The notes beneath the pieces are model-generated. The model saw only the letters and a program-made list of their open reading frames with translations, searched no databases and was not told where the DNA came from. Positions 1 to 19,462 of a stretch of 64,000 nt of DNA are shown here, piece by piece (the stretch's first letter is position 1; every line of letters starts with the position of its first letter). The DNA is taken from contig NC_018204.1 in the NCBI RefSeq assembly GCF_000219625.1, forward strand, positions 186,001 through 250,000. The letters run 5' to 3'. This stretch comes from Zymoseptoria tritici IPO323 (Eukaryota > Ascomycota > Dothideomycetes > Mycosphaerellales > Mycosphaerellaceae). Position numbers and translations under genes: made by a program.

Positions 1-2110
1 GCTATAGGGCGGACGGCGCGGCGGTAGAGAGGTAAAGGATAGGAGGGTACTATAGAGTATCTATTAAAAGGGAGCTAGTAAGGGTTATATTAAAGTTTTA
101 TAGTAGAGTATATAATTTAAAGCTAATAAAGTAGAGTTTAGAGCGGAGGATACTATTACGGTTAGATCTATACGGAGCTTCTTTACTCCTTTAAGGATTC
201 TCGTCTATAGTCGACTAACCGTCCTACTTCTAGATTAAAAATTATTATATTTATATCTATACGTAGATATAATATAACTTAGAACGTACTATCCTCTAAA
301 GCTATTACGGACGCTTCTACTACCGCGATTAGTAAATAGAGTAAACGACTTATAGAAAAGAAGGATATTAAGGGAATACTAGGCTTATATTTACTCTAAG
401 ACTATAGTATAAGGGCTAGTAAGATTGCTACCTATTTTATTATAGATACGAAAATAGGTATACCTTAGGTATACTAGCTCGATATTAAAGGGATAAGGTT
501 TTAAGTAAATATCGTAATAGCTAGAGAGAATTATAGATACTATTTTTAGCTATAGAAAATTACCTACCGGACCTACCTATTCTATTAAGTTATATATATA
601 TATTACATTTTACCTCCTAAAGCCCTAAAAGTAGGCTCTTTATTATCTCTCCGGCGATATTATAGATACTAATAATCCGCTAAGATTATAGACTAGTTGC
701 TTCTATTTAGTTTATCTCGCCTACCGTATTATAGATATATTCTTATATATATTATATAATACTAGTTTAGTCCGCGAGCTAGATTCTTACTATAATCTTT
801 AACCGTAAATATACGAGATCTTCCTAACTAAGTCGGCGGCTTATATCTCGATATAGTATTTAAAAAAAGACTTAGATAAAGAGAGGCCCGATATATAGAC
901 TTATAATTCTAATATCGGTTCGCGATTTTTAAACGTCTAACGTATAACTAGAACTTTATTATATAGCGCTAAGGACGAGAGTCTTAATAACTAGAACGCC
1001 TAGCGGTTATAAATAGAGGGATATAGAGGTGAATAAGTATATAGTAAGGATTAATAGTATCGGTAAAGAGAGAAGGAACGCTAGCTAGAAAGGTCTAAGG
1101 TTAGCTATAAAAAGATTAATATACTATACGCCGTTTTAGCGTTACGCCGACACCCGTAAGTCTACTTATAAGTAGATAAGTAATAGAAATAGCGAGGAAA
1201 CCTCGTATTCGGAAATTTAAGACTAATCTCTTTAATATCTATAGAGTTTAGTCTAAGTAGACCTCTTTATATTATAGGTTAGCGGGTACTTATAGAGAGT
1301 AGGTTTCTATTCCGGCGCGGAACGAAGTATAGTAGCGAGGAGTTGCCTTCTAGAACGAAGAGTGCTTAGATATATAATAGGAAACCTAGACCGGTAAGGA
1401 GGTAATAGGGAGCGACATATATAAAGGAACTTACCGTAACTATCTATCTTACCTAGTTCGTAGTAAGGATAGTCCGAGACGGCGAGCGGGGAAGAGACTA
1501 GCGGTCTAAGGCGGGAGATAGCCGTAGTATACTTAGCGGTCGGACTTCTCCTAGCGCGCTATACTACTACGGATGCGAAGTAGATACTTTTCCTATATAG
1601 ATATACCTAGCCTAGTAGTACCTATATCTACGAGTTCCTTTTTAGCCCGACGATAACGCTATACGATCCGATCGGTAAAGGCTATTATAGCGATTACTAC
1701 CGTATTTACCGCTACTAAGGTCGAGACTTAAGTAGTTTATATAGGTCTAATAATTAATTTATTAATTATGTAAGGTACACTCCGAGAAGGACAGGGTAGC
1801 GAGGTAGTATTATATATGTAGGGGTAGTGTTAGGTAGCTATTTATAAAAGTTATTACGAAAGGAGAAAGAAAGTCGGTAGCTAATACCGTAGACATATAA
1901 CAATCGTACGAAGTTGGTTATAAGGTTATTAACGTTGTCACCTCTAATTTTTTCGTTTGCATAATTGCTTCCTATCTATTATTGTTCTCTAACAAACTAT
2001 CTCTTTCGATTCCGAATTTATTACACTAACCCTCTTCCTAAACCGCCTCCTTTTCGGCCTTCCGACTCCCTACTTATAGTCTACTAATAAGAAAGACCCT
2101 ACCGGACGAA
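1..2110. other. RIP-saturated block, no usable reading frame
   Basis: Bases 1-425 contain no CA and no TG dinucleotide at all, while TA is very dense and CG is kept. All frames are closed by TAG and TAA. This is the end state of RIP acting on CpA on both strands. The original content, a repeat or a duplicated gene, cannot be recognised by eye. CA and TG become slightly more frequent from about 1750 on. Confidence 0.75.
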
Positions 2111-6085: not shown

Positions 6086-6300
6086 TGTCACATCTGCCTC
6101 CGCCGAATACCGACAATCGGCATCTGATCCCCTGCCTTAGCGGCATATGCACCCCTACTAGGGCCTTTTAAGCTCGTTTAAGCTAGATTGCGCCTGTAGT
6201 ATAAGGATACGTAGAATCTCCTCCTTCCGAGAGAGTATCGAATCGAGTCTGTTCTAAAGTGATTTATACTACTACTCTATTCTTAACTACACCTTTTACA
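6086..6300 (+). repeat. 5' LTR, 215 bp
   Basis: It starts TGTCACATC and ends CCTTTTACA. I count 11 differences from the 3' LTR (18389-18603). All are transitions with no gaps. The gag frame is already open within the last 40 bases. Confidence 0.96.
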
Positions 6301-6342
6301 TACGATTCGATCTACCCTATAGTACGACGAATTACTTCCGAG

Positions 6343-8790
6343 ATAGCTTCGTCTCGTCCCGGCCTATTAGGGAGCAAGAGCACCCGTCGCTATACGAACG
6401 AACCCGCTAACGACCCGGAGACTATAGAAACCTCTACTTAGACTGCCGTTAGCGACGACGAAGACGCCGAAGGCGGGCCTAAAAACCCGGAAGAACCTAT
6501 CGGGCACTAGGATACCGCTAACGAGGGCGAAGAAGAACCGGAGAACCCTCTACAGGAAGAAGACACTCTACCTAAGGGAGAAGAAGACGATATTAATAAA
6601 CAAATCTGTAAGGAAGAGGCCGCTACCGCCAGATAGGAGCGCCTCCTCCAGCTTAGCCTTCTTTAGGCACGCAACAAGGCTATAAGGGACCGCATCGCCT
6701 AGGTACAGAACGGATCTATCCCTACTATCCTGCCCGATGCCCTAGTTTAGCTATCTATCCCTAAGAACGCGCTCCTAAAGGCCCGGAATCCCTACATCTT
6801 CGAGGGAAAGAACCGCGCCGACTAGGAATAGTAGTAGGAAGACATTAACCGAGCAATTAACCGGGCTAGTATAGCTACCGACGAAGAAAAGATAGAATTC
6901 GCTAAAGAATAGATAGCGAGACCCTAAAAGTAGTACTAGAAGCGCTACCTTCTCGACAAGGCACCTGTTTGGCTAACATAGAGCGACATATAGCTCGTAA
7001 TGCTAGATTCTATAGGTACAAAAGACGAACGCACCTAAAGAGCTATAGACAACATTAAAGAGGCTAAATAGGGCGACAGGACCCTAACTAGGCTAATAAA
7101 CTACCTAAAAGAACAGTAGGATAAGATCGGTTGCACTAACATTCCTAGGATAATCTATAAATTTAAGGGAGCTCTTACCCTAGTAGTTAGAAACAGGCTC
7201 GAACAGGGCTAAGTTACCCTTACGACCCTTATAGATACGGAGGAACAAGCTAACATATCGTACTAACAGATACAGGAATTTAACAAAAAGCGCTTAGCAA
7301 AGACTTCCGTCGACGAGACTAACGGAAGGCGCCTAAACAAAAACAACAAGCCCCTAAGTAGGCCGAGAAGGGCTAAAACCCCCCCGAAGGCAGCTAATAA
7401 GGAGAAGTCGGCCACTGCCTACTAGATATATAGCAAAGAGGGCTACCGGCGCTAGGAATGCCCTAACAAAGACTAGTCGGGAAAAGGGAGAGCCCGCAGT
7501 AGATCTCCTCTAACCGCTGCGGGTTAAGTCTAGTACTTAGAGGCCTAAAGAAAGGCTGCCGAGCCAGGAGGAATTCCCCGAACTACAGGGGAAGGGCTAA
7601 TACGCCTTAAAGTAAAGATGTAGGGTCCTAATAGGACTAAGATACTCTAAGCACTGCTTAATTACAGAGCGCAAAGCAACTTTATAGACAATATAGCAGC
7701 TAAAGAGCTAGGCCTAAGCCCCAAGTTAGGGCAAACGGCCTAATACGTAGTACTAAACGGCTAGAGGATAGCTATTTAGGGAGAATGCCGCGTCCCGTTT
7801 AAAGTAACGGACACTTAAGGACACACAAGAGGATATGTAGAAACCTTCGTAGTCGGAAGAATCTACGGGTTCTAACTAGTCCTCGGCATGCCCTAGCTAG
7901 AACGATAGAACCCGAGGGTAAACTTTATCCGCAAAAGCGTTACCTAGAAGGGGACGAAAGGCAGACAATAGAGGCCGGTTAGGCTCGTCTTACCCGAAGA
8001 GTTCTAGAAGGACGCCTCCGGCATCCCTTCGGGGCGCGTTTAGGCCCTTGCCGCTTAACGCACAGACGACGCGCCAAAAGAACCGGAACTTCCAAGCGAA
8101 TTCTCGGATTTCGCGGACGTTTTCGCAGAAGGAAACGAGTCCCTTCTCCCTAAGACGGGGCCGAATAAGCTTAGTATCGACCTCGAAGAAGGCAAGGAGG
8201 CCCTATACGGCCTATTATACAACCTCTCTATAACAGAACTAGAGACTCTACGTAACTACCTCGCCGATAGCCTAGAGAAGGGGTAGATCCGCCCCTCGAC
8301 CTCCCTAGCGGGGGCAGGCATCCTCTTTATAAAGAAAAAGGACGGTAGCCTACATCTATGCGTCGACTATAGGGCCCTTAATGCCGTTACTATTAAGAAT
8401 AGATACGCCCTGCCCCTCGTCTAGGAATCTCTAGACCAGTTGGCGCCGGCAAAGTTCTTTACAAAGCTAGATATACGAGACGCGTACTATCGCATCCGAA
8501 TTAAGGAGAGCGACTAGTAGAAAACTGCCTTTCGGACGAGGTATAGCCACTTTAAGTACACTGTAGTCCCGTTTGGGCTAACTAACGCCCTAGCAGTGTT
8601 CTAAGGATATATAAACTACGCCCTCTAGGGCCTGCTGGACTACTATGTTGTAGTATACCTCGACGATATCTTAATATACTTACAAGACGCCGAAAGCCAC
8701 AAGAAACACGTTAGGATAGTCCTCGAGAGACTTAGAAGACACCGACTCTTTGCTAAACTATTAAAGTGCGAGTTCTTTAAGCGGCAAGTC
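6343..8790 (+). pseudogene. gag-pol, 5' part: Gag, protease, RT to LINE insertion
   Basis: One frame, interrupted only by RIP-type TAG and TAA codons, carries Gag and the start of Pol. The probable start is ATA at 6343, formerly ATG. Gag has an acidic N-terminal part and a helical core. It ends in a zinc knuckle (7420-7461) of the pattern CxxCxxxxHxxxxC in which three of the four metal ligands are now Tyr (TGC/TGT to TAC/TAT, CAC to TAC). The protease active site (7660-7671) reads NYRA instead of a D-x-G-A motif. The RT part follows, with YLDD intact at 8656-8667. No Gag stop separates it from Pol, so the polyprotein was a single frame. The LINE interrupts it after residues CEFFKRQV. Confidence 0.92.
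8778..8790 (+). repeat. 13-bp target duplication of the LINE, left copy
   Basis: TAAGCGGCAAGTC occurs here and again at 14373-14385. The pol reading continues from one copy to the other once the LINE is removed. The A-rich LINE tail makes the exact length ambiguous by two or three bases. Confidence 0.9.
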
Positions 8791-9750
8791 CATCGACATC
8801 CGCACTTCCATTGCACACCTAATATTGACCCGATCATTACCAAACACGCACCATTCGAAAGCCCTTATTAAGGCCGTTCTAACGAACCCGCATTCACCCC
8901 GCTACCCTCAAAACCCACGCCGCTACTGGAGTTCAAAGATTCACCTTGTTGCCCCCTTTAGGGTGCAAATTTGAACCTAAACTCCGGGATTTGGCCCCTA
9001 CCTCCGAAACCTTATTCCGACCTTACCTCCCCTACACTCGAAACATTCCCTGTTTAGGGCATTACACAAGGAAGGTTTACAACCTATACTACAACACTTT
9101 AACACACTACAACACAACCAATACGCCGCCGATTCGGACGCCGTGTAGCCCGTTTGAAAGCCCTCGACGAGAGCTTTTATTCTAGCTATCAAACGCCTGA
9201 TTTAGTCGAATTTTGGAAGAGCCAAAGGCTAAACAAGAGCAGTGTTCCTAGGATACATAAACATACATATACATATACACTTAGTTCTCTCTATACTAGA
9301 GTTACCTGTTGTCCTACGCCGCCGAGAGAGGAAGCTAAAGGAGCAGTGTAGTTTAGTAAGGACGAATTTGCACCTCTAGGGATTAGAGTAGTAGTACTAG
9401 CTGTATAGCTAGATACTCTATATAGAGTATAGGCCTACCTTTCCCTAGAGACAAAGGTTGTCCCGAACCTGCTACCGCTACCCGCAGAACGCCTCTAAAG
9501 CCTGCTATAAAGACGCACGTTGCTGCAGGCCAGAGTACTTCCTAGAAGCAGAGGTATATTTATATATCTCTTCTCTCCTCTTTAAAGTATACCTTCTCCT
9601 ATACTACTTAATAGTAGGGAGAAGAGTGCCCTAGTGTCGCAAGTAGGCTAGGACCCGAACGCGATTAGAAATAGAGACGAACAAGCAGCCCTCTCGGCGT
9701 AAGACTACTGAGCCTCTTTTCAAACAACAAACAATAACAACAATAAGACA
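8791..9750 (+). other. 5' leader of the LINE
   Basis: There is no coherent frame before the ATG at 9751. CA is frequent but TG is rare, so the G-to-A side of RIP dominates. Short frames here (8946-9185, 9154-9351) have no protein character. An internal promoter would be expected for a LINE, but none is identified. Confidence 0.6.
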
Positions 9751-10923
9751 ATGTCTACCGAGACGGAAATAACAGACGCAAGCTTAGCCCCTTAGACTCC
9801 AAAAGCTACGGCTAGAGGGGACGAGGAAGTTACGTTTAAGTCTCTTAAGACCCTGCCGTCGCCGAAGGAACTACTAAAAAGAACCGGCATTCCTTTCCTA
9901 CCTAGGAAAAGGCAAAACCCCTTTAAATTTAGTAACTCCCCGACTCGCAGCCCTTCTCTCGGAAAGAAATAAACACTCTCTTACACGCCTGCGAACGAGA
10001 AGATCCTACAAGCCCGACAGCTACTAGTCGAAGCGGCGGGGGATCTAGTCGGGTTTCTAGGAGAACAAACCTGGGTTTTCGACCTTCTCGAAGTCTTTCG
10101 GCACTTTACCGAGCGTACAGACTTTAGGACAACGTCCCAAATCCTCGCAAAGCAAGTCTCGAACCTAGAAATAACAACAAAGAAACTAGCAGCATAGGCG
10201 AAGAAGCCTACTTTCGCAGACGTTGTTAAGGGAGACAGCGGATCCGCTACCTCTACCTCTACCTCCTCGACAACAAAGACAACATAACAACAACAACAAC
10301 AATAACAACAACAACAGTAGACGACCGTCTCCCGGAGGGCTAGTAAGCCGAAAGAACAAGCAGAACCGATGCCTCTTATCCTTGTACTAAAGGATAAAGA
10401 GAAGGAACTCGACTAGATCGCAACCCGAGACAAAATTAACAACGCTCTTAAAGGCGAAGACCAAGAGCTAGCTGTCCTTGCGATAAAGAAATTATTTCGG
10501 GGTAATATTGTCCTAAACTTTGCAACAGAGAAAGCCCGCTAACGAACGATTAATAGCCTTACTAAGGTTACCGATATCGTAGGCGAGGCACGGGTAATAG
10601 AGGACTCTCTCTAGCACAAGGTCGTAGTCTACGGCGTCTCGACCGCGAACTTTAACACGCTAACAGGCCTATAGGACATTCAACGAGAAATTAAGACCTT
10701 TAATAGAGGTCTTAAACTCGTAGGCACCCCGATTTGGCTAACAAACGAAGAGAGAAGAAGGACTCTTACTAGGGCGACAGTTCTAGTAGGTTTTGCTACC
10801 GAGGAGGAGGCAAAAAGGGCTATTTAAAACCGTCTATACGTAGGCGCGGACAGCCTAAGAGTCGAGAAGGCGAAGGATCGTATATAACAGAAAGGGAGGC
10901 CCCTAGAACGTTCTACATGTTAG
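9751..10923 (+). pseudogene. LINE ORF1 (nucleic-acid-binding Gag-like protein), RIP-broken
   Basis: The ATG at 9751 follows an AAC-rich leader. The frame of 390 codons contains RIP-type stops (TAG and TAA). The first third is basic and Ser/Pro-rich. A Gln-rich run encoded by CAA repeats lies near 10290-10320. The last third reads like the RRM-type RNA-binding fold of Tad ORF1 proteins, with a hydrophobic strand (VVYGVS) and a basic end. The expected ORF1 zinc knuckles are not visible. The final TAG at 10921 overlaps the ORF2 start in ATGTTAG. Because TAG may come from CAG or TGG, the true end is uncertain. Confidence 0.8.
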
Positions 10924-13900
10924 AATACTCTCTACGGATTTTCTATATTAATCTTAACTAATCTATCGAGGCTATAGAGTCTACCTTAGACGTCGCGGTT
11001 AAGCAGAAAGCCGACCTTCTACTAGTCTAGGAACCGTGGACTATAGAAGACCCGATAACAGGCTACAAAGAGACAAGATCTATTGCACACCGGGAATACA
11101 ACCAGCTATTCCTAACGACTACGGATTCGACGATCCGGCTAAGAACAATGCTATATATTAGCACAAGACTTAACGTTAATATCTCTCCTATTTTATTAGA
11201 CGACAGCGACATACTTTCCTTTGTTATTTTAGACAAGAAGGGCAATAAGATCTAGATAGTTAATCTCTATAACGAGAAGGACCTTCGGGATACCGAGAAC
11301 CCGCAAAACCGACGAACAATAGAGAGAATCCTCTACTCTCTACGCAACACGTTCCTTCTAAACACTCTACTAGTAGGAGACTTTAACCTTAGACACCCGT
11401 CCTAGGATCCGAGGGGAAAGGATACTACTAGCGCCCGCGAATTTATAGAGTAGATAGAAGACTAGGGCTTTACTCTACGTAATACGATAGGTGTCGGGAC
11501 CTTCTATAGGCCGCACCTAGACGCAGAGTCGGTCCTAGACCTTACGTTTATAAGAGGATCCTTATCTACGAAAGAAATCGACTAGAGAACGATTCCGACA
11601 GGCTCAGACTATAAGGCTATATCTATAGACCTTATTAGCGCGCAAGATCGAGCCCAACAGAAGAAAGTAGTTCTAGATATAGCTTCCGCGGATTAGGAAC
11701 TGTTTATAGATCTCCTAATAAGCAAGGCGACGTCTATTAACTATACGAACTCCCTCGACGACATTGCAGACTCCTTTACCTCGTGTATTACCGAATCGAT
11801 GCGGGGAGTAATCCTAGAGAAAGTAGTATACGCCTGCGCGAAACCTTGGTAGAATAGAGAGCTACGCACGCTACGCCGTACAATGTCTAGAACATATAGA
11901 CAGACCTTTACCTACGGACGTACGCCGACGCTAGACGAGAAAGAGGCGTATACGAAAGCGAGAAACGAGTACTTCTAAGCTATTAAAACAGCTAAGAAGA
12001 ACTACTAGAACGCTTTCCTCGAAAAAGAAGACTCGAAATCTATCTTTAAAGCTATGTCCTATACTAGGAATAGCAGCCGAAGACAGATACCTACGATAAA
12101 CAACGAAGATTCTTTCGAGGGGAAATGTAAGGCCTTCTCCGAAGCCTTATTTCCGCGCCCTCCTACCGAGGAACCTCTACCTAGCCGTTAGGAAGCGTAT
12201 ACAGCCGGGGATTAGGGCTAGACTACGCTAACCGAAGAGGAACTCGCTACCGCCTATAGTACGAAGATAGTAAAAGAAAAAACGCCGGGCCTAGACGGTA
12301 TTACGCAAGCTATTATTAGTAAAGCGTACGGCGCTATTCCTATTACCTTTCTACGTATATATAGTAGGCTACTCGACGAAGGACACTACCCCCGATGCTG
12401 GAAAGTTGCGACAGGCGTAGTTCTAGCAAAGCTAGGAAAACTAGACTATTCGGTCCCTAAGGCCTACCAAGTTATCTCTCTCCTAAACTACCTTAGTAAG
12501 ATTAGCGAGAGAATACTCGCAAAACGCCTAGGGATTATCGTAGAGACGAAGCCCCTTCTACACGACTCGTAGTTAGGAGGGCGAAAGAAGAAATCGGCTA
12601 TCGATACGGTACTTCTCTTAACGAATAAAATCGAGGAGAATCGAAGAAAGAAAAAGAAGACTTCGGTTATCTTCCTCGACGTAAGAGGAGCATACGACTA
12701 CGTTGCAAAGAACCGACTGTTAAGAATAATAATCTAGTTAAGGCTTCCGCATAGCCTTATATATTAGGTTTAGTCGTTTATAAGCAATAGACGCCTACGA
12801 ATAGCATTCGACGGATAGATATAGGAATTCTAGGACGTAGAGATCGGCGTTCCGTAAGGCAGCCCGATGTCTCCTATCCTCTTTCTAATCTATACGCGCG
12901 ATATATTCTTCTCGCTATAAGGAGTTACTCCTAGTTCCTACGTCGACGACATTAGACTATCTACCTCGTCTACGTCCCTTAAGAAGAACTCTAAGGTACT
13001 AGAACGTAAGGCAAGAAGGCTAATAGACCTAGGAAAGAAGAACTCGATTACTTTCGACCTAGCAAAGATAGACCTAGTACACTTCTTAAAAGGGAAAGGG
13101 TCCGATTGCCCGGTAATTCTTCTAAACGGCGATATTGTTCGCCCGGCAAAGAAAGCGATAAGGTAGCTTAGGATTTAGCTAGACGCCGGTCTTACCTTTA
13201 AGGAGCACATTGCAATAAGATCGGCACAAGCATAAGCAGCATTCTATCGATTAGAAAGACTAGCAAATACCGAACGCGGTCTATCTTCTATATCGTTAAG
13301 AAAGATCTACCTAGCCTACGTTACTATAATAGTAGACTACGGGGCCCCGGTTTGGTAGCGGTCGAAAAAGAGTATAAAACCTCTAGTATCTCTATAAAGT
13401 AAAGCTTATAGAAAGATCCTAGGCGTTTTCCGTACCGCCCCAAATGTCCCGTCCGAAGTAGAGTCAAATCTCTTCCCCCCGGATCTACGCCTAGAGAGAC
13501 AGTCAATTTTATACTCTCTACGCGTAGCAAAGCTACCCGAAAACTACCCTGTAAGACTCGCTATCTAAAGCGCGCCTTCGGATACGCGAGAAGTCCAACA
13601 CGAGGACTCGAGAGAGATACTTCCGCAAAAACGATAGAGAACATAGATATAACTACTCTGTTATCGACTCCGACAATATAAGCATTTCGTAGAACACGAG
13701 AGGGCTAACTACGCAAAAGACGATCTCTTTAGCGTCTAGAAAACCCGATACGAAATAGTAAGACAATAGGAGATTAATAAGGTACCTAGGAATACAAATA
13801 GCTACCTTAGTCGATTTCTATAGAGCCTGCTAGGAAAACATAGAATAGGAGGAAGACGCGCTTTAACTAGTGCCTTCTATACTATCCTATTAGGACACGG

Positions 13901-14288
13901 ATACCTAAAGTCCTATCTCTATCGCTTTAGACACGTAACGACGCTAGACTGCCCTTGCGGACGACGAGAAACAGTAGAACACCTCGTATGTAGCTGCCCT
14001 ATCTACGATGTATTTAGGCCACTACCGCTACGACAAGCACAATCTCTACTAGAAATAGTAGAAGATAAGGAACTCCGGAAACACCTTACTACCTTTCTCT
14101 CGGATACAAAGATTGCTTCTAGGTCCTAGCACCTAGCAAGAGGCGAAGACGAGACCGTCTAGCCTACACTCCTTTTACTTTTCCTTATTTGTCTTTCTTT
14201 AAAGTCCTTCGATACTAGCTAGCTACTATCCTAGGTACGGGTCTTTCCCTAAGGTCAAGAGATACGAGAGAACAACGATTGTACATAG
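10917..14288 (+). pseudogene. LINE ORF2: AP endonuclease, reverse transcriptase, CCHC
   Basis: The frame starts at ATG 10917, overlaps the end of ORF1, and runs about 1,120 codons with RIP-type stops. The endonuclease shows LLVxEPW near its start and GDFN at 11376-11387. Its SDH motif has become SDY (His codon to TAT at 11610-11612). The RT shows GLDG, LDVxGAYD and GSPMSP motifs and an intact YVDD at 12939-12950. Near the C-terminus a CPCG...H...C motif (from 13950) forms the CCHC seen in Tad-like ORF2. The product would nick target DNA and reverse-transcribe its own RNA there. The TAG at 14286 may itself be a mutated CAG. Confidence 0.88.
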
Positions 14289-14349
14289 ATAGACTACTGT
14301 CGCGAGACAGCCGTCCTACATAGTCATAGACTCCTACAGGACGTAAATG

Positions 14350-14372
14350 GAACAAACAAACAAACAAAACAA
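14350..14372 (+). repeat. A-rich 3' tail of the LINE
   Basis: AAC/AAAC units directly precede the right copy of the 13-bp target duplication. This is the usual 3' end of target-primed insertions. Confidence 0.85.
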
Positions 14373-14385
14373 TAAGCGGCAAGTC
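14373..14385 (+). repeat. 13-bp target duplication of the LINE, right copy
   Basis: Identical to 8778-8790. The pol frame of the gypsy host resumes here with residues KRQVGYL. Confidence 0.9.
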
Positions 14386-16896
14386 GGCTACCTTAGGTTC
14401 GTAGTAACCCTAAAAGGGGTCGAAATAGAGGCAGAAAGGATCCAAGCTATCGCTAACTAGCCCCTTCCGGCCTTAGTTAGGGACATTCGCATCTTTATCG
14501 GATTTACGAACTACTACCGCTAGTTTATTAAGGGATTCTCCCGCATAGCTAGCCTACTAAACTGCTTAACAGAGAGAGGCCTAAATAGTGCCAAAGGCGG
14601 ACACCGACAGAGAAAGGAGGAATTAGTTCCCCTCGAACTCCTACCTAACGCAGTACAAGCATTCTAGCAGTTAAAGACTAGGTTTATTAAAGCGCCTATC
14701 TTACGGCATTTTAACCCAAAACTGCCTATCCGCGTCGTAACAGATGCCTCTAGGTTCGCCGTCGGGGCAGTACTGTCCCAACCGCATAAAACGGAGGGCA
14801 AAATGCACTAGCACCTAGTAGCCTTCTTCTCTAGCAAGATAAACGCGGCCGAAAGGAACTATAACATATACGATTAAGAGCTTCTCGCTATAGTCGAGGC
14901 CTTTAAGCACTAGAGACACTACGTTAAGGGCGCTTCGCACCAAATTAAGGTCTTAACAGACTATTATAACCTAAAATAGTTTATAACAACTAAGCAACTA
15001 AGCCGAAGATAGGCAAGATAGGCAGAGTAGCTGTTAAACGTCGACTTCCGCATAACGTACAACCCGGGGTCGCTTAATGCCGCCGCGGACGGAGTAAGTA
15101 GACGCCTAGACTTAGAAGATAGGGACTACTCGGAACGGTGGATTAACGAAAGCGACAGTGCTCCTACATTAGACACCCTTCGGCACTAACTAGGTCTATC
15201 CGAGGGAATAACGGCCGAATCTAGCCCCGTTTAGTCTATAATAGCAGTTATAACCTACTATCTACAGCTCGCCACGACCTACTACAGCAAAACGTATATA
15301 ATAGCGAGCACTCTAATAGAAGAATTATTAGACTCCCCGCTAATTAATACAATACGCGAAAGCCTGAAACATAACCCTATAGCATTAACAGTCGAACTAG
15401 CTATAAATAACCCGGATCCGCTAGAATAGACCTAAAGGTAGGCTATATAAGGCGAATTCCTCTTCTACGAACGGAAACTGTACGTGCCTGCGGGCCTAGT
15501 ACGCCTAGCAGCTCTCCGCTAGTGCTATAACGATCCCCTAGCCGGCTACTTTAGTTTTGAACGGACCCTAGAGCTGTTGCAACGGTCGTTCTACTAGCTA
15601 GACATAAGAAAATACGTTAAGGACTACGTAAACAGCTGCTAGATATGCGACAGGGCGAAGCTACGGCGATATAGCCTATATAGAGAACTCTATGCGGAAG
15701 CTCTACTAAACGGGCCCTAGGAGGACCTAACATTGGATTTTATTACCGATCTGCCCCTAAGTACGTTTATAGGGCATACATACGACTTAATCCTCGTCGT
15801 TATAGACAGGTGGTCCAAAATAGCCTACTATATTCCTATACGGAAGGATATTAACGCCGAAACCCTCGCGGAGGTCTTCCTAAGAGAAATCTTCCGCCTT
15901 TACGGAACTCCTAAGTTAATTACGTCCGACAGAGGACTAATCCTTATATCTAAGTTCTAGAGCACGCTTTGCTACTACCTTAGGGTCCGAAGGGGCCTAA
16001 GTACCGCATATTACCCCTAAACGGACGGTTAGACGGAACGTTAGAACTAAACGCTAGAGCAATACCTACGAGTGTACTACAACTACGAACAGGACGACTA
16101 GGCATAGATGCTGTCGGTAGCCGAATTCTCTTACAACGATAGCGTTTATGCGACAACAGGGGTAACACTATTCTAAGCATATAACGTTCGCGATCTAATT
16201 GCCGCCAGATGGCCCGACCTGCCCTAATTAGAGGGCAAAGCTCCTAGTGCGGCGGAAATAGCGCATAGGGTAATCGGCCTATAGAAAACGCTATATAAAA
16301 GACTAGCTACGTTACAGGAGAGACACGCACGATACTACAATGCTCGCAAAACTGCGAAAACATACAAGGTTAGCGACCGTATGTACCTCTCTACTCGATA
16401 TTTGAAGTCTATCCGGCCGTCGGAAAAGCTCGATTACAAGTATATCGGCCTATATAGGATTAAGCGAGCCGTAAACGACGTCGCGTATACGCTAGAACTG
16501 CCGGAAACGATAAATATCTATCCTACGTTCTACATCTCCCTACTAGAGGAGGAAAAACCTACTAAAATCACCGAACGGGCCTAGAATAGCCTAAAGGAGA
16601 TCCGATTAGAGGAACCTAACGTTTACGTAGTAGACAAGATCCTAAAGCGTAAGAAACAACACGGCAGATGGATATACAGGATCGCGTGGAAGGGCTAGCC
16701 CGCGTCTAAAAACACTTAGGAACCTACGACTTACATTAGCCCTACTGCGATAAGAGCATTTAATAAAAGCACGGGAGGTACTAAGGGCGGTAGACTAGCA
16801 CGATAGATATACAAACGCGTTATTAGTTACTATTAAGGCCTAAAAGACACTAGTTAACACTATATAGACTCCTTAGTCCGGTTCCTAGTTACCTAA
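14374..16896 (+). pseudogene. gag-pol, 3' part: RT end, RNase H, integrase, chromodomain
   Basis: The frame matches that of 6343-8790. It finishes the RT thumb, then carries RNase H (VVTDAS near 14734), and an integrase with its zinc finger and an intact CxxC at 15637-15648. One His of that finger appears changed to Tyr. The catalytic core shows LDFI and TSDRG near 15735 and 15925. A C-terminal chromodomain lies at 16621-16740 (WIYRIAWKGW-like). The chromodomain places the element among chromoviruses, which target integration to heterochromatin. The stop is TAA at 16894-16896, and the other copy has TGA there. TAG codons throughout are RIP products. Confidence 0.92.
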
Positions 16897-17158
16897 AATT
16901 TTTCTCTACCTTAGAAGAATTTTAATCTAATAAAATCCTAGGGGGGGAAATTAGGGGCTAAACGGGCCCCTAAGGACGACATTATTACACAACGAGAGAC
17001 AATCGAGCACAGTGAAGTCATTTTAATTCTATCTGATCTATAAGTCGCCAAGTCGTAGCAAAAAGAAACAACCCGGGCGTTACCGCGCCTATTAGTCCTA
17101 AAACGAGCCTAAAAGAGGCTAAAAGAGATAAAAGAAACACGAAAAAGCGCTTATATGC

Positions 17159-18180
17159 TTATTCCTTAGGCTTAAGGTCCCTAGAGAGGTCGTACTCGGT
17201 CGGACGGAGCACTCCCTCTATAACGGAGGCCTTCGAGCCCTTCTTAGCGCCCGCACGGGTATAGACGGTGTCTAGAGCGGCCGAAAGGGCCTAAACGCGA
17301 CGCCGTAGGCGGTCCTCGGTAGATCCTTAGGCTAGAATAAGTCGCTTACGGGGGGTGTTAGGCATGTCTTTACCCTGTTAGGGTTAGTAGGGCACTTTTG
17401 GGCAAGAAGGGACCTAAATACTTATAAGCTCCCTCTTTCGCTTTACAGCCTCCTTAGCGAGCAACTTCTCGCGCTTTCCGAACATAAGCGGTCCCTTCTA
17501 GTCGAATTCGGCCTTGCCTTAGTACAGATAGAGGCCGTTAACACTAGTAAAGGAGTTGAAGCGCCTAAAAGGGGGTTAACGGAGCCAAACAGACCCGAAC
17601 TAACTACACATACCCCTGAATGCGTACGTAGACCGCCTTATAGGCCGAACAAGCCGCCGCAGCTATCGCTCCGGTACTATCGGCGGCAATAGCGGCCCTA
17701 CGGAGCTTATTAGCCCTCGTAATGTCGCCTTTAACTAGTTCCGGCATCTTTTAACTACATTAGCCCCCGAAAGCCCCCTTTTAAACCCGTACATACCTAG
17801 AAACAATCGCGGTTGGAGCAATTGTAACACTTTAGGTAATATTCGTCCTTATTATTAGTTGCCCACTTGTCCGGCGATTCGCGCGCAAAGAGGCAGAACT
17901 AGGCCAAATCGGCCTTGTTTAAGGGCTTGTTAAGGCAGTTAACGCACGGATTGCCCTTAAAGATGCCGTTAGCGGCGAATTGCTTGCGTTAGGTCGCGAT
18001 AGAGGCGGGTTACGTCATAATAGGCTCGTTCGGTCGCGGATAGGGTCGTTTAGTAAGAATAGCGGTTTTTCGATAAAAGTCGAGGTCGTCCGGTAGAAAA
18101 TAGGGCTAAAAGGGAACTAAACGCTACGTTAGCACTATACAGGCTACAAATGCCCCTTAGGGGGGCACTTTTAGACCTAT
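17159..18180 (-). pseudogene. Antisense intron-bearing accessory gene of the gypsy element, copy 1
   Basis: It lies between pol and the 3' LTR on the opposite strand. Four exons are joined by three introns: 17748-17796 (49 bp, GTATGT donor), 17565-17613 (49 bp, GTATGT donor) and 17375-17425 (51 bp, donor now ATAAGT, ACTAACC branch). With the introns removed the frame is continuous to TAA at 17161-17159. Its only interruptions are RIP-type TAG and TAA codons. The protein is about 290 residues. Exon 1 has the Cys spacing C-x2-C-x13-C-x21-C-x2-C-x4-C, which could bind zinc. The later exons are basic and helical with a Lys/Arg-rich stretch before the last intron. The 5' end is not resolved. I recognise no family. 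Fungal DUF3716-type Cys motifs would be a first comparison. Confidence 0.75.
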
Positions 18181-18373
18181 TTAGCCATCGGATAGGGTTA
18201 AGTCACACTTACTAAGTCTGCACAAGGTTGTTAAAGAAGAGAAGAACTCGAGGGATCCGAGCCTAGGTTTTAAAGCCGCAGTAGACCCCGATTAAGGCCT
18301 TAGGCTATTAAACTTAGCAAACACTAAAAAGAATTCACTCGAGGTAAAACTGTTTAGAGCGCGACGCTCTGCG

Positions 18374-18388
18374 TAAGGAGGGGGGCTA
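18374..18388 (+). promoter_or_regulatory. Polypurine tract
   Basis: A run of A and G (AAGGAGGGGGG) ends a few bases before the 3' LTR. It is the expected primer site for plus-strand synthesis. The inverted copy has the complementary run just after 60093. Confidence 0.7.
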
Positions 18389-18603
18389 TATTACATCTGC
18401 CTCCGCCGAATACCGACAATCGGCATCTAATCCCCTACCTTAGCGGCATATACACCCCTACTAGGGCCTTTTGAGCTCGTTTAAGCCAGATTGCGCCCGT
18501 AGTATAAGGATACGTAGAATCTCCTCCTTCCGAGAGAGTATCGAATCGAGTCTGTTCTAAAGTGATTCATACTGCTACTCTATTCTTAACTGCACCTTTT
18601 ACA
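18389..18603 (+). repeat. 3' LTR, 215 bp
   Basis: It is the same length as the 5' LTR. It begins TATTACATC, where TG has become TA, and ends CCTTTTACA. It is followed at 18604-18608 by the GCTTT duplication. Confidence 0.96.
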
Positions 18604-18697
18604 GCTTTTACTAGTTTTGTAAATGCGCGAACTTCTCTCTCTCCTCTATAGATAGCTCTTTACCCTCCTTCTGTTTTAATTCTTCCTCGAGCGGATC

Positions 18698-19462
18698 CTA
18701 CATACTAGGTATGTCTAAAGGTGAAGCCGGAGAAGAGGATTCGTTGGATGATGAAGGTGGATTAGGGTAGGGTTGATTGGCGGCGGCGAGCGAATTATTG
18801 AGACCGTCGTTAGAGAGGACGAGCGCCGGGATAGCAGCGCTCTGGGCTCGATATAGGATCGGACCTTGTCGGCGACGGATGCTCGGCCATAGGGGTGAGT
18901 GCCTTGGACAAAGAGGATGATCGATGGGAACGGTGTAGATTTTGCGGCGGTGGTGGAGAAGATGGATGGGTTGAAGAAGGAGCACGAAGATCATCAAATG
19001 AAGGATGGAAGGTGTCCACAAAGATGCTCTGGCTGGTCTTCCGTAGGCTCCTCGGAGCGTGGACTGTTGATCCTGTAGTCGCTTGAGGCGGGCGCTTACT
19101 GAGGCAGTCGTAGGCTCGTACAAGTCTCTGTCTGTTGGCCGGTCGTGTATGGTATCGCTGTATCGATCTGTCTGTCGGTCTGTAGAGTTCACGTTCTTCC
19201 AGTCGGTCTGAGTCGTCTGTGAAATCTCTGCACTGTCGAGATTGCGATGGAAAGACTCCCAATCTTTCGTAGTAAGACGAGGAGTTCTGGTTGAGGACAG
19301 AGCGGCTTTGACGGAGATGGCGGTGTACTCGGGGGTTTCGAGCCACTCGGTGAAACAGAGGTGGTTGGTTCTCGATTGAACTTTGGGGGATCCCGACGAG
19401 CTCATTTGTAGAGACGAGTGTGTAGTGGTATTTGTGAGCGGATCTTGTTGGCCAGTGTGCAA
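18698..19462 (-). pseudogene. Degenerate host gene next to the LTR, unknown function
   Basis: A frame of 254 codons is open on the minus strand. Its N-terminal part, with an ATG near residues MSSSGSPKVQ, and its C-terminal part, a Ser/Pro/Asn-rich tail ending at 18698, read like a fungal protein. The middle (about 19100-18850) is more protein-like in another frame, so small indels are likely. The gene starts 90 bp from the LTR and shows little RIP. No domain is recognised. Confidence 0.35.

What the first reader, a model, noticed from the sequence alone, without database searches (positions are those of the whole stretch)
17159..18180. Intron-bearing antisense gene inside a Ty3/gypsy element
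Between pol and the 3' LTR the opposite strand carries a four-exon gene. Three introns of 49, 49 and 51 bp have canonical donors and branch sites, and the frame is phase-consistent across all junctions. It is present at the same place in both copies, so it belongs to the element. Intron-containing genes must enter from DNA or be kept antisense, because introns in the sense RNA genome would be spliced out. Being antisense explains why they survive retrotransposition. The Cys spacing C-x2-C-x13-C-x21-C-x2-C-x4-C suggests a zinc-binding protein. I do not recall such a gene as a standard part of fungal gypsy elements.
Basis: partly seen in the sequence, partly recalled or inferred. Interest (0 to 1): 0.88.

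Follow-up and report, generated by a model that had tools for sequence, protein, structure and literature searches.

The report
Spliced antisense gene in fungal retrotransposons
A jumping element in a wheat-infecting fungus carries, on its reverse strand, a small gene with three introns, and a related gene with introns at matching places sits in two other diverged element families, so introns can apparently ride through copying via RNA by facing backwards.

Summary
The finding holds and grows. In the window copy (minus strand, 18018-17159) the four exons and intron lengths 49/49/51 are as described, but intron 3 starts ATAAGT, not GT, and the frame has 8 stops: the element is RIP-mutated. The least mutated of 40 fetched copies (L042) has the same exons, three GT..AG introns and 236 codons with two stops. 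Two annotated proteins of Zymoseptoria tritici strain 1E4 match it (97%, 92%) and between them span all three junctions; that annotation used RNA-seq intron hints. The gene lies downstream of 39 of 40 scored pol ends; the 40th copy is truncated. New: two further Ty3 families (reverse transcriptase 65-67% identical to the window's family) carry a related antisense gene with six matching Cys and introns in phases 0,2,0 (two of six acceptors were chosen to keep frame). Searches found no relative outside Z. tritici and no known domain. Antisense accessory genes of Ty3/gypsy elements are known (Boty brtn; plant Grande, Retand); antisense introns kept across diverged families are the unusual part. 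Function is inferred: a basic, probably zinc-binding regulator.

The parts
17797..18018 (-). Exon 1 with ATG and the six-Cys domain (C-x2-C-x13-C-x21-C-x2-C-x4-C)
   Evidence: homologous to exon 1 of families B and C
17748..17796 (-). Intron 1, 49 nt, GTATGT..CTAAT..AAG
   Evidence: the only intron with indels among copies (7 events)
17614..17747 (-). Exon 2
   Evidence: present in P0001 and P0002
17565..17613 (-). Intron 2, 49 nt, GTATGT..GTTAAC..TAG
17426..17564 (-). Exon 3
   Evidence: homologous to exon 3 of family B (0 of 1000 shuffles) and C (9 of 1000)
17375..17425 (-). Intron 3, 51 nt; donor reads ATAAGT in this copy; TACTAAC..CAG
17159..17374 (-). Exon 4 with the stop codon, K/R-rich
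18117..18212 (-). Candidate leader intron, 96 nt, GTAAGT..CTAAC..TAG (predicted only)
   Evidence: donor GTAAGT in 38 of 40 family A copies; similar candidates in families B and C
18233..18246 (-). CT-rich tract, candidate antisense promoter or start region (inferred)
   Evidence: L042 position 455 on; CT-rich stretches also before the candidate leader introns of B and C
18375..18385 (+). Polypurine tract AAGGAGGGGGG (by position and sequence)
6086..6300 (+). 5' LTR, preceded by GCTTT
18389..18603 (+). 3' LTR, followed by GCTTT
6301..8790 (+). First half of the gag-pol region; reverse transcriptase match begins at 8329
   Evidence: C15:194329-194793
8791..14372 (+). Nested LINE-like insertion, 13 bp duplication TAAGCGGCAAGTC, CAAA-rich tail; not part of the element
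   Evidence: absent from the seven other long stretches L057-L063
14373..16806 (+). Second half of pol to about its end (position by offset from L057)
   Evidence: RNase H, SH3_Tf2-1, Chromo matched in L057
60464..61323 (+). The same antisense gene in the second, inverted copy, which runs off the window

Best explanation
A Ty3/gypsy chromovirus lineage of Zymoseptoria tritici carries an accessory protein gene on its antisense strand between pol and the 3' LTR, with three spliceosomal introns. Shown by sequence: the gene is part of the element and is shared, with matching introns, by three diverged families. Follows from known biology: the genomic RNA is the sense strand, on which these introns read CT..AC, so they are not removed before reverse transcription; spliced mRNA can come only from antisense nuclear transcripts of integrated DNA. 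Inferred: transcription starts at a promoter of the element's own (CT tract and leader intron between the 3' LTR and the ATG); the product, about 240 residues, basic with a six-Cys domain, is a nuclear zinc-binding regulator of the element (feedback on sense transcription, or help with integration or chromatin escape), as HBZ is for HTLV-1 and as proposed for plant antisense ORFs. Real element-borne antisense spliced gene: about 0.9. The protein is what selection kept: about 0.8. Nuclear regulator: about 0.4.
For: L042 structure. Two 1E4 gene models span the three junctions in an annotation made with RNA-seq intron hints (PMC5765654, passages). Gene downstream of 39 of 40 scored pol ends. Families B and C: product scores A-B 174, A-C 99, B-C 356, above each of 1000 shuffles; 23 of 25 B and 17 of 22 C-like exon-1 matches lie antisense to a reverse transcriptase match 3.2-4.1 kb away. 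No indel event in 711 exon positions among 56 loci, 7 in intron 1. Transversion columns 30 of 711 in exons, 13 of 153 in introns, p 0.04. Product basic: A 43 K+R, 27 D+E.
Against: No transcript seen. Stop counts do not favour the frame in most copies. Synonymous excess among exon transversions is weak (10 to 23 against 269 to 1153 possible, p 0.08), and the excess of third-position transversions between families is not significant (p 0.10-0.19). Exon 2 shows no A-B or A-C similarity. Acceptors of B intron 3 and C intron 2 were chosen to keep the frame after first choices failed, so the match in phase is partly by construction at those two of six junctions. Indel contrast overstated by simple repeats. 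No domain or fold. No function tested.
Confidence: 0.75

Rival explanations
1. The antisense transcript, not the protein, is the working product: it pairs with sense RNA, feeds small RNAs and tunes copy number; the reading frame is a by-product.
For: Position and strand fit; such a role is discussed for plant antisense ORFs (PMC7264820, passages).
Against: A non-coding RNA would not need six matching Cys, exon-by-exon protein similarity and matching intron places in three families. Both may be true.
Confidence: 0.12
2. A host gene captured by an element ancestor and now a passenger without use to the element.
For: Introns of ordinary fungal kind; no relation to known retroelement proteins.
Against: Kept in three families whose reverse transcriptases are 65-85% identical; exon-1 queries of A, B and C gave 77, 74 and 66 matches, and I saw no host copy among them, though these lists hold scored candidates only and host context was not checked match by match. 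Capture is a possible origin; passenger status is what is disfavoured.
Confidence: 0.08
3. Chance or sense-strand coding: the antisense exons are an accident of RIP-mutated DNA, or the sense strand holds the real frame.
For: In most copies the sense-strand frame has as few stops (6.8 against 7.7 on average); 2 of 100 shuffles of L042 reach its open path.
Against: Gene models in another strain use the same borders; exon similarity to B and C follows the proposed exons; position 3 of the antisense codons has the most transversions in all three comparisons, though not significantly, where a mirrored sense frame would predict position 1.
Confidence: 0.05

Closest known systems
brtn, antisense gene of Boty-like Ty3/gypsy elements (Botrytis cinerea, Sclerotinia sclerotiorum)
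   Same: Fungal Ty3/gypsy element with a chromodomain; extra gene in antisense between pol and 3' LTR (PMC7264820 and PMC4227169, passages)
   Different: The brtn paper is not held, so introns, Cys domain and homology could not be compared; no Botrytis protein came up in searches with our proteins
Plant antisense ORFs aORF-3R (Grande gene23, RIRE2, Retand, PvRetro13)
   Same: Same place and strand, in most copies of a family, no known function; gene23 has its own promoter and a nuclear product (PMC7264820, passages)
   Different: No introns mentioned in the review's main text (term search); Retand products carry TRP28 (PMC11963269, passages); no Pfam domain here
HTLV-1 HBZ
   Same: Antisense gene at the 3' end giving a nuclear regulator (PMC11963269, passage; its splicing and bZIP are recalled)
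   Different: Retrovirus of people; only a non-significant match of P0001 to a C/EBP bZIP chain (E 0.15); the candidate start here lies outside the LTR

Membership tests
Ty3/gypsy chromovirus (the carrying element) | Two LTRs with TG..CA ends and short target duplication | tested here: met
   (TG..CA read in less mutated copies; GCTTT in the window copy)
Ty3/gypsy chromovirus (the carrying element) | Reverse transcriptase, RNase H, integrase and chromodomain in this order | tested here: met
   separate pieces of L057: RVT_1, RT_RNaseH_2, SH3_Tf2-1 and Chromo above cut-off; rve below cut-off (E 0.0006)
Antisense additional ORF between pol and 3' LTR (aORF-3R) | Antisense, between pol and 3' LTR | tested here: met
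Antisense additional ORF between pol and 3' LTR (aORF-3R) | Present in most copies of the family | tested here: met
   39 of 40 scored pol ends
Antisense additional ORF between pol and 3' LTR (aORF-3R) | Transcribed | not testable with these tools
   only indirect: 1E4 gene models made with RNA-seq hints
BRTN of Boty elements | Sequence homology to BRTN | not testable with these tools
   BRTN sequence not at hand; paper not held
HBZ-like bZIP regulators | bZIP domain | tested here: not met
   no Pfam match; C/EBP match E 0.15
Zinc-binding protein | Conserved Cys set across diverged members | tested here: met
   six Cys in A, B and C; one is Tyr in 2 of 4 B copies shown
Zinc-binding protein | Known zinc-finger family | tested here: not met
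   no Pfam match for A or B products
Zinc-binding protein | Bound zinc | not testable with these tools
   bench assay needed

The most novel reading that the evidence does not exclude
A lineage of Ty3/gypsy elements has kept an intron-bearing antisense gene since before its families split, so spliceosomal introns have survived very many rounds of reverse transcription by facing backwards. The introns may also act as a check: the protein can be made only from a nuclear antisense transcript of integrated DNA, never from the genomic RNA, so it reports integrated copies.
Probability: 0.5. Interest if true: 0.85.

Novelty: new variant of a known kind. Interest (0 to 1): 0.72.

Why it matters
Retroelements are expected to lose introns because they copy themselves through RNA. 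This case shows a simple way round that, kept in three diverged families, and gives an orphan protein family with 117 exon-1 matches in one genome (52 A, 44 B, 21 C). It makes testable whether fungal LTR elements control themselves with antisense proteins. It also warns annotators: such genes appear as unnamed host genes (as in strain 1E4) or may vanish under repeat masking.

Tried and rejected
Chance open frame: rejected on the gene models and families B and C, though the window copy alone cannot exclude it.

Foreign nested insertion or recent capture: disfavoured because three families carry a related gene in the same place.

LTR-borne antisense promoter as in HTLV-1: not the first choice; in family A the CT tract starts about 140 nt inside the LTR edge. 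LTRs of B and C were not mapped, and no promoter was tested.

Domain and fold: Pfam, PHROGs and PDB sequences gave nothing significant; Rfam gave no match in 16700-18700; the AlphaFold2 model of P0002 is unusable (mean pLDDT 42), so no fold search was run.

Homologues elsewhere: three protein searches found only the two 1E4 proteins; viral contigs gave none; genome contigs is prokaryotic and was not scanned.

Selection tests on RIP-mutated DNA gave weak signals only.

Families D and E: an antisense Cys-rich frame in D (E 0.05 to C) and a long antisense frame in E were looked at; stop counts do not favour the antisense frames, so neither is claimed.

Full report
Source. The window is G000:C15:186001-250000 of a 39,686,251-base genome in 21 contigs. 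That the window is from IPO323 is an inference.

The element. Window 6086-18603 is one Ty3/gypsy insertion with 215 bp LTRs (TG..CA ends in less mutated copies), target duplication GCTTT and a polypurine tract before the 3' LTR. All seven of the long stretches L057-L063 run straight from the equivalent of 8790 to 14373 (the eighth, L064, matches only an 837-base part further on), so 8791-14372 is an insertion of 5.6 kb; it has a 13 bp target duplication and a CAAA-rich tail and is LINE-like. Two of its frames had no Pfam match at E 0.01, so the LINE reading rests on the edges. The same sequence (96% over 5,579 bases) sits in another copy, L080, between pol and the gene. The element proper is about 6.9 kb. 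Separate pieces of the less mutated copy L057 match RVT_1, RT_RNaseH_2, SH3_Tf2-1 and Chromo above cut-off and rve below it: a chromovirus. In 2 kb steps the element has TA/AT 1.8-2.1 and (CA+TG)/(AC+GT) 0.3-0.6, against 0.3-1.2 and 0.8-1.4 in the host DNA between the two copies: RIP.

The gene in the window. Minus strand, exons 18018-17797, 17747-17614, 17564-17426 and 17374-17159; introns of 49, 49 and 51 nt. The third donor is ATAAGT in this copy. The joined frame has 8 stops here and 9 in the second copy. By itself this is weak evidence.

Less mutated copies. A DNA search of the genome scored 40 of 57 candidates, matching at 92-100%. Of the 40 fetched, L042 (C19:88469-90372) has the lowest TA/AT, 1.27. 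It reads as four exons of 222/134/139/216 nt, introns of 53/49/51 nt, and 236 codons with 2 internal stops. A lenient splice-aware search finds its longest open path, 184 codons, with exactly these introns; 2 of 100 shuffles reach that length; four other copies (L014, L028, L029, L034) do not exceed their shuffles (37, 54, 24 and 60 of 100). Two 1E4 proteins match: P0001 (162 aa, 97% over 69% of the query) and P0002 (133 aa, 92% over 56%). P0002 crosses junctions 1 and 2, P0001 crosses 2 and 3. The 1E4 genes were predicted by BRAKER with intron hints from infection RNA-seq (PMC5765654, passages), so the introns are probably, not certainly, supported by reads. Intact gene models therefore exist in nature.

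The gene belongs to the element. A pol-end query scored 40 of 82 candidates. 39 of the 40 have an exon-1 match of the gene in antisense downstream within 12 kb, 33 of them within 1.7 kb; the other six have a longer gap, as insertions would give. The 40th (C9:206920) stops matching at the end of pol and has neither gene nor 3' LTR in the stretch fetched.

Constraint within the family. In a pile-up of 56 loci on L042 (not each covering every column), no indel falls in 711 exon positions; 7 indel events fall in the 53 positions of intron 1, none in introns 2 and 3, 5 in LTR and leader, 12 in 269 positions on the pol side. Part of the intron 1 and pol-side events lie in simple repeats, so the contrast overstates selection; without intron 1 and the pol side, 5 events and none in exons give 0.04. 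Transversion columns: exons 30 of 711, introns 13 of 153, Fisher p 0.04; L063 against L042: 13 of 711 and 9 of 153, p 0.008. Among exon transversions 10 are synonymous and 23 are not, against 269 and 1153 possible, p 0.08. Stop counts per frame do not favour this frame in most copies (fewest in 7 of 45).

Two more families. An exon-1 query (P0002 residues 1-74) gave 77 matches in the genome: 52 of this family (A) and 25 distant ones at 33-38% identity, E 1e-4 to 0.013. 23 of the 25 lie 3.23-3.28 kb beyond, and antisense to, a reverse transcriptase match. In L082 this family B reads as exons 216/137/139/261 and introns 56/42/51 with phases 0/2/0, 250 codons with 6 internal stops; GT and AG are kept at all three introns in the three other copies looked at (L081, L083, L084). 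A first choice for the acceptor of B intron 3, 7 nt upstream, broke the frame. A family B exon-1 query gave 74 matches: 44 B, 6 A, 3 fragments, and 21 at 46-51% identity that form family C. Of the 22 rows I tested as family C (the 21 and one fragment), 17 have a reverse transcriptase 3.2-4.1 kb away in antisense; the fragment (L088, C2) proved to be a family B exon cut off in its middle. In L087 family C reads as exons 216/137/127/252 and introns 53/57/49 with phases 0/2/0, 243 codons with 10 internal stops; a first choice for the acceptor of C intron 2, 13 nt upstream, was out of frame. So at two of the six B and C junctions the acceptor was chosen to keep the frame; the donors and the other four acceptors were not. 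Product local scores A-B 174, A-C 99 and B-C 356 exceed each of 1000 shuffles (maxima 58, 71, 60). By exon: exon 1 is significant in all three comparisons (0 of 1000), exon 3 in A-B and B-C (0) and A-C (9 of 1000), exon 2 only in B-C, exon 4 in B-C (0) and weakly in A-C (15 of 1000), not in A-B (112 of 1000). Cys spacing: A C-x2-C-x13-C-x21-C-x2-C-x4-C; B C-x2-C-x13-C-x14-C-x2-C-x7-C; C the same as B with x15. One Cys reads Tyr in 2 of the 4 B copies shown. Transversions by codon position (1, 2, 3): B-C 67, 61, 82; A-B 78, 71, 97; A-C 76, 86, 104; third position highest each time, p 0.10-0.19; exons 1 and 3 alone give the same trend, p 0.13-0.19. Reverse transcriptase pieces are 67% (A-B), 65% (A-C) and 85% (B-C) identical; in a tree of 17 pieces B and C join at support 0.99 and A joins them at 0.56. 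Of 125 Ty3-type reverse transcriptase matches (150 are listed; I left out 25 longer-spaced ones by eye), 74 have an exon-1 match of these families in antisense 2-12 kb downstream and 51 do not; the family A list given to that script was partial, so 74 may be low.

Leader. In A, B and C a CT-rich stretch is followed by a candidate intron, GTAAGT..CTAA[CT]..AG, ending 98, 7 and 9 (or 4) nt before the ATG; in family A the donor is GTAAGT in 38 of 40 copies. I read this as the antisense gene's own start region. It is a prediction.

What it works like. Reverse transcription copies the sense genomic RNA, and introns lying in antisense are not recognised there (established knowledge). Antisense ORFs of plants in this position are transcribed, gene23 of Grande from its own upstream promoter, and some products are nuclear (PMC7264820, passages). 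In fungi, Boty elements have brtn in this position (passages). I place this gene with them by position and strand; homology to any of them is not shown. The product is basic (A 43 K+R, 27 D+E), has no Pfam family, and found no relative outside Z. tritici in three protein searches or in viral contigs. The nuclear regulator role is inference.

Novelty. Nine paper searches ran and one failed. The listings and the passages read showed antisense extra ORFs in plants and Botrytis, and I saw in them no LTR element with an antisense multi-intron gene at matching intron places in several families. The library lacks most subscription papers, the brtn paper among them, so this does not prove absence. Two Z. 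tritici transposon papers do not use the word antisense in their main text (PMC10652580 and PMC10936205, term searches).

Noticed in passing
window 8791-14372: A 5.6 kb LINE-like insertion (13 bp duplication, CAAA-rich tail) splits the window element; the same sequence at 96% lies between pol and the antisense gene of another copy (L080).
   Followed up: partly
L106 (C3:2592200-2594500), about 1090-1800: A fourth Ty3 family (D) has an antisense frame with a Cys motif like family C (E 0.05) and no evident introns; stop counts do not favour it. Possibly an intron-free relative.
   Followed up: partly
L107 and L108, about 361-1790 of the reverse complement: A fifth Ty3 family (E) has a long antisense frame (16 stops in 476 codons) rich in charged residues beyond pol; other frames have as few stops, so it is unproven.
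   Followed up: partly
C4:957302-958374: A family C and a family B exon-1 match lie about 650 bases apart in opposite orientation.
   Followed up: no
L088 (C2:1892950-1894350): A family B exon 1 is cut off in its middle and joined to unrelated sequence.
   Followed up: no
window 1-2000: AT-rich, strongly RIP-like stretch ((CA+TG)/(AC+GT) 0.11) left of the element, probably another old repeat.
   Followed up: no
LTR of several copies, L042 reverse-complement position 199-202: Insertions of 21 or 41 bases inside the LTR (7 alignments) mark a subgroup of copies.
   Followed up: no
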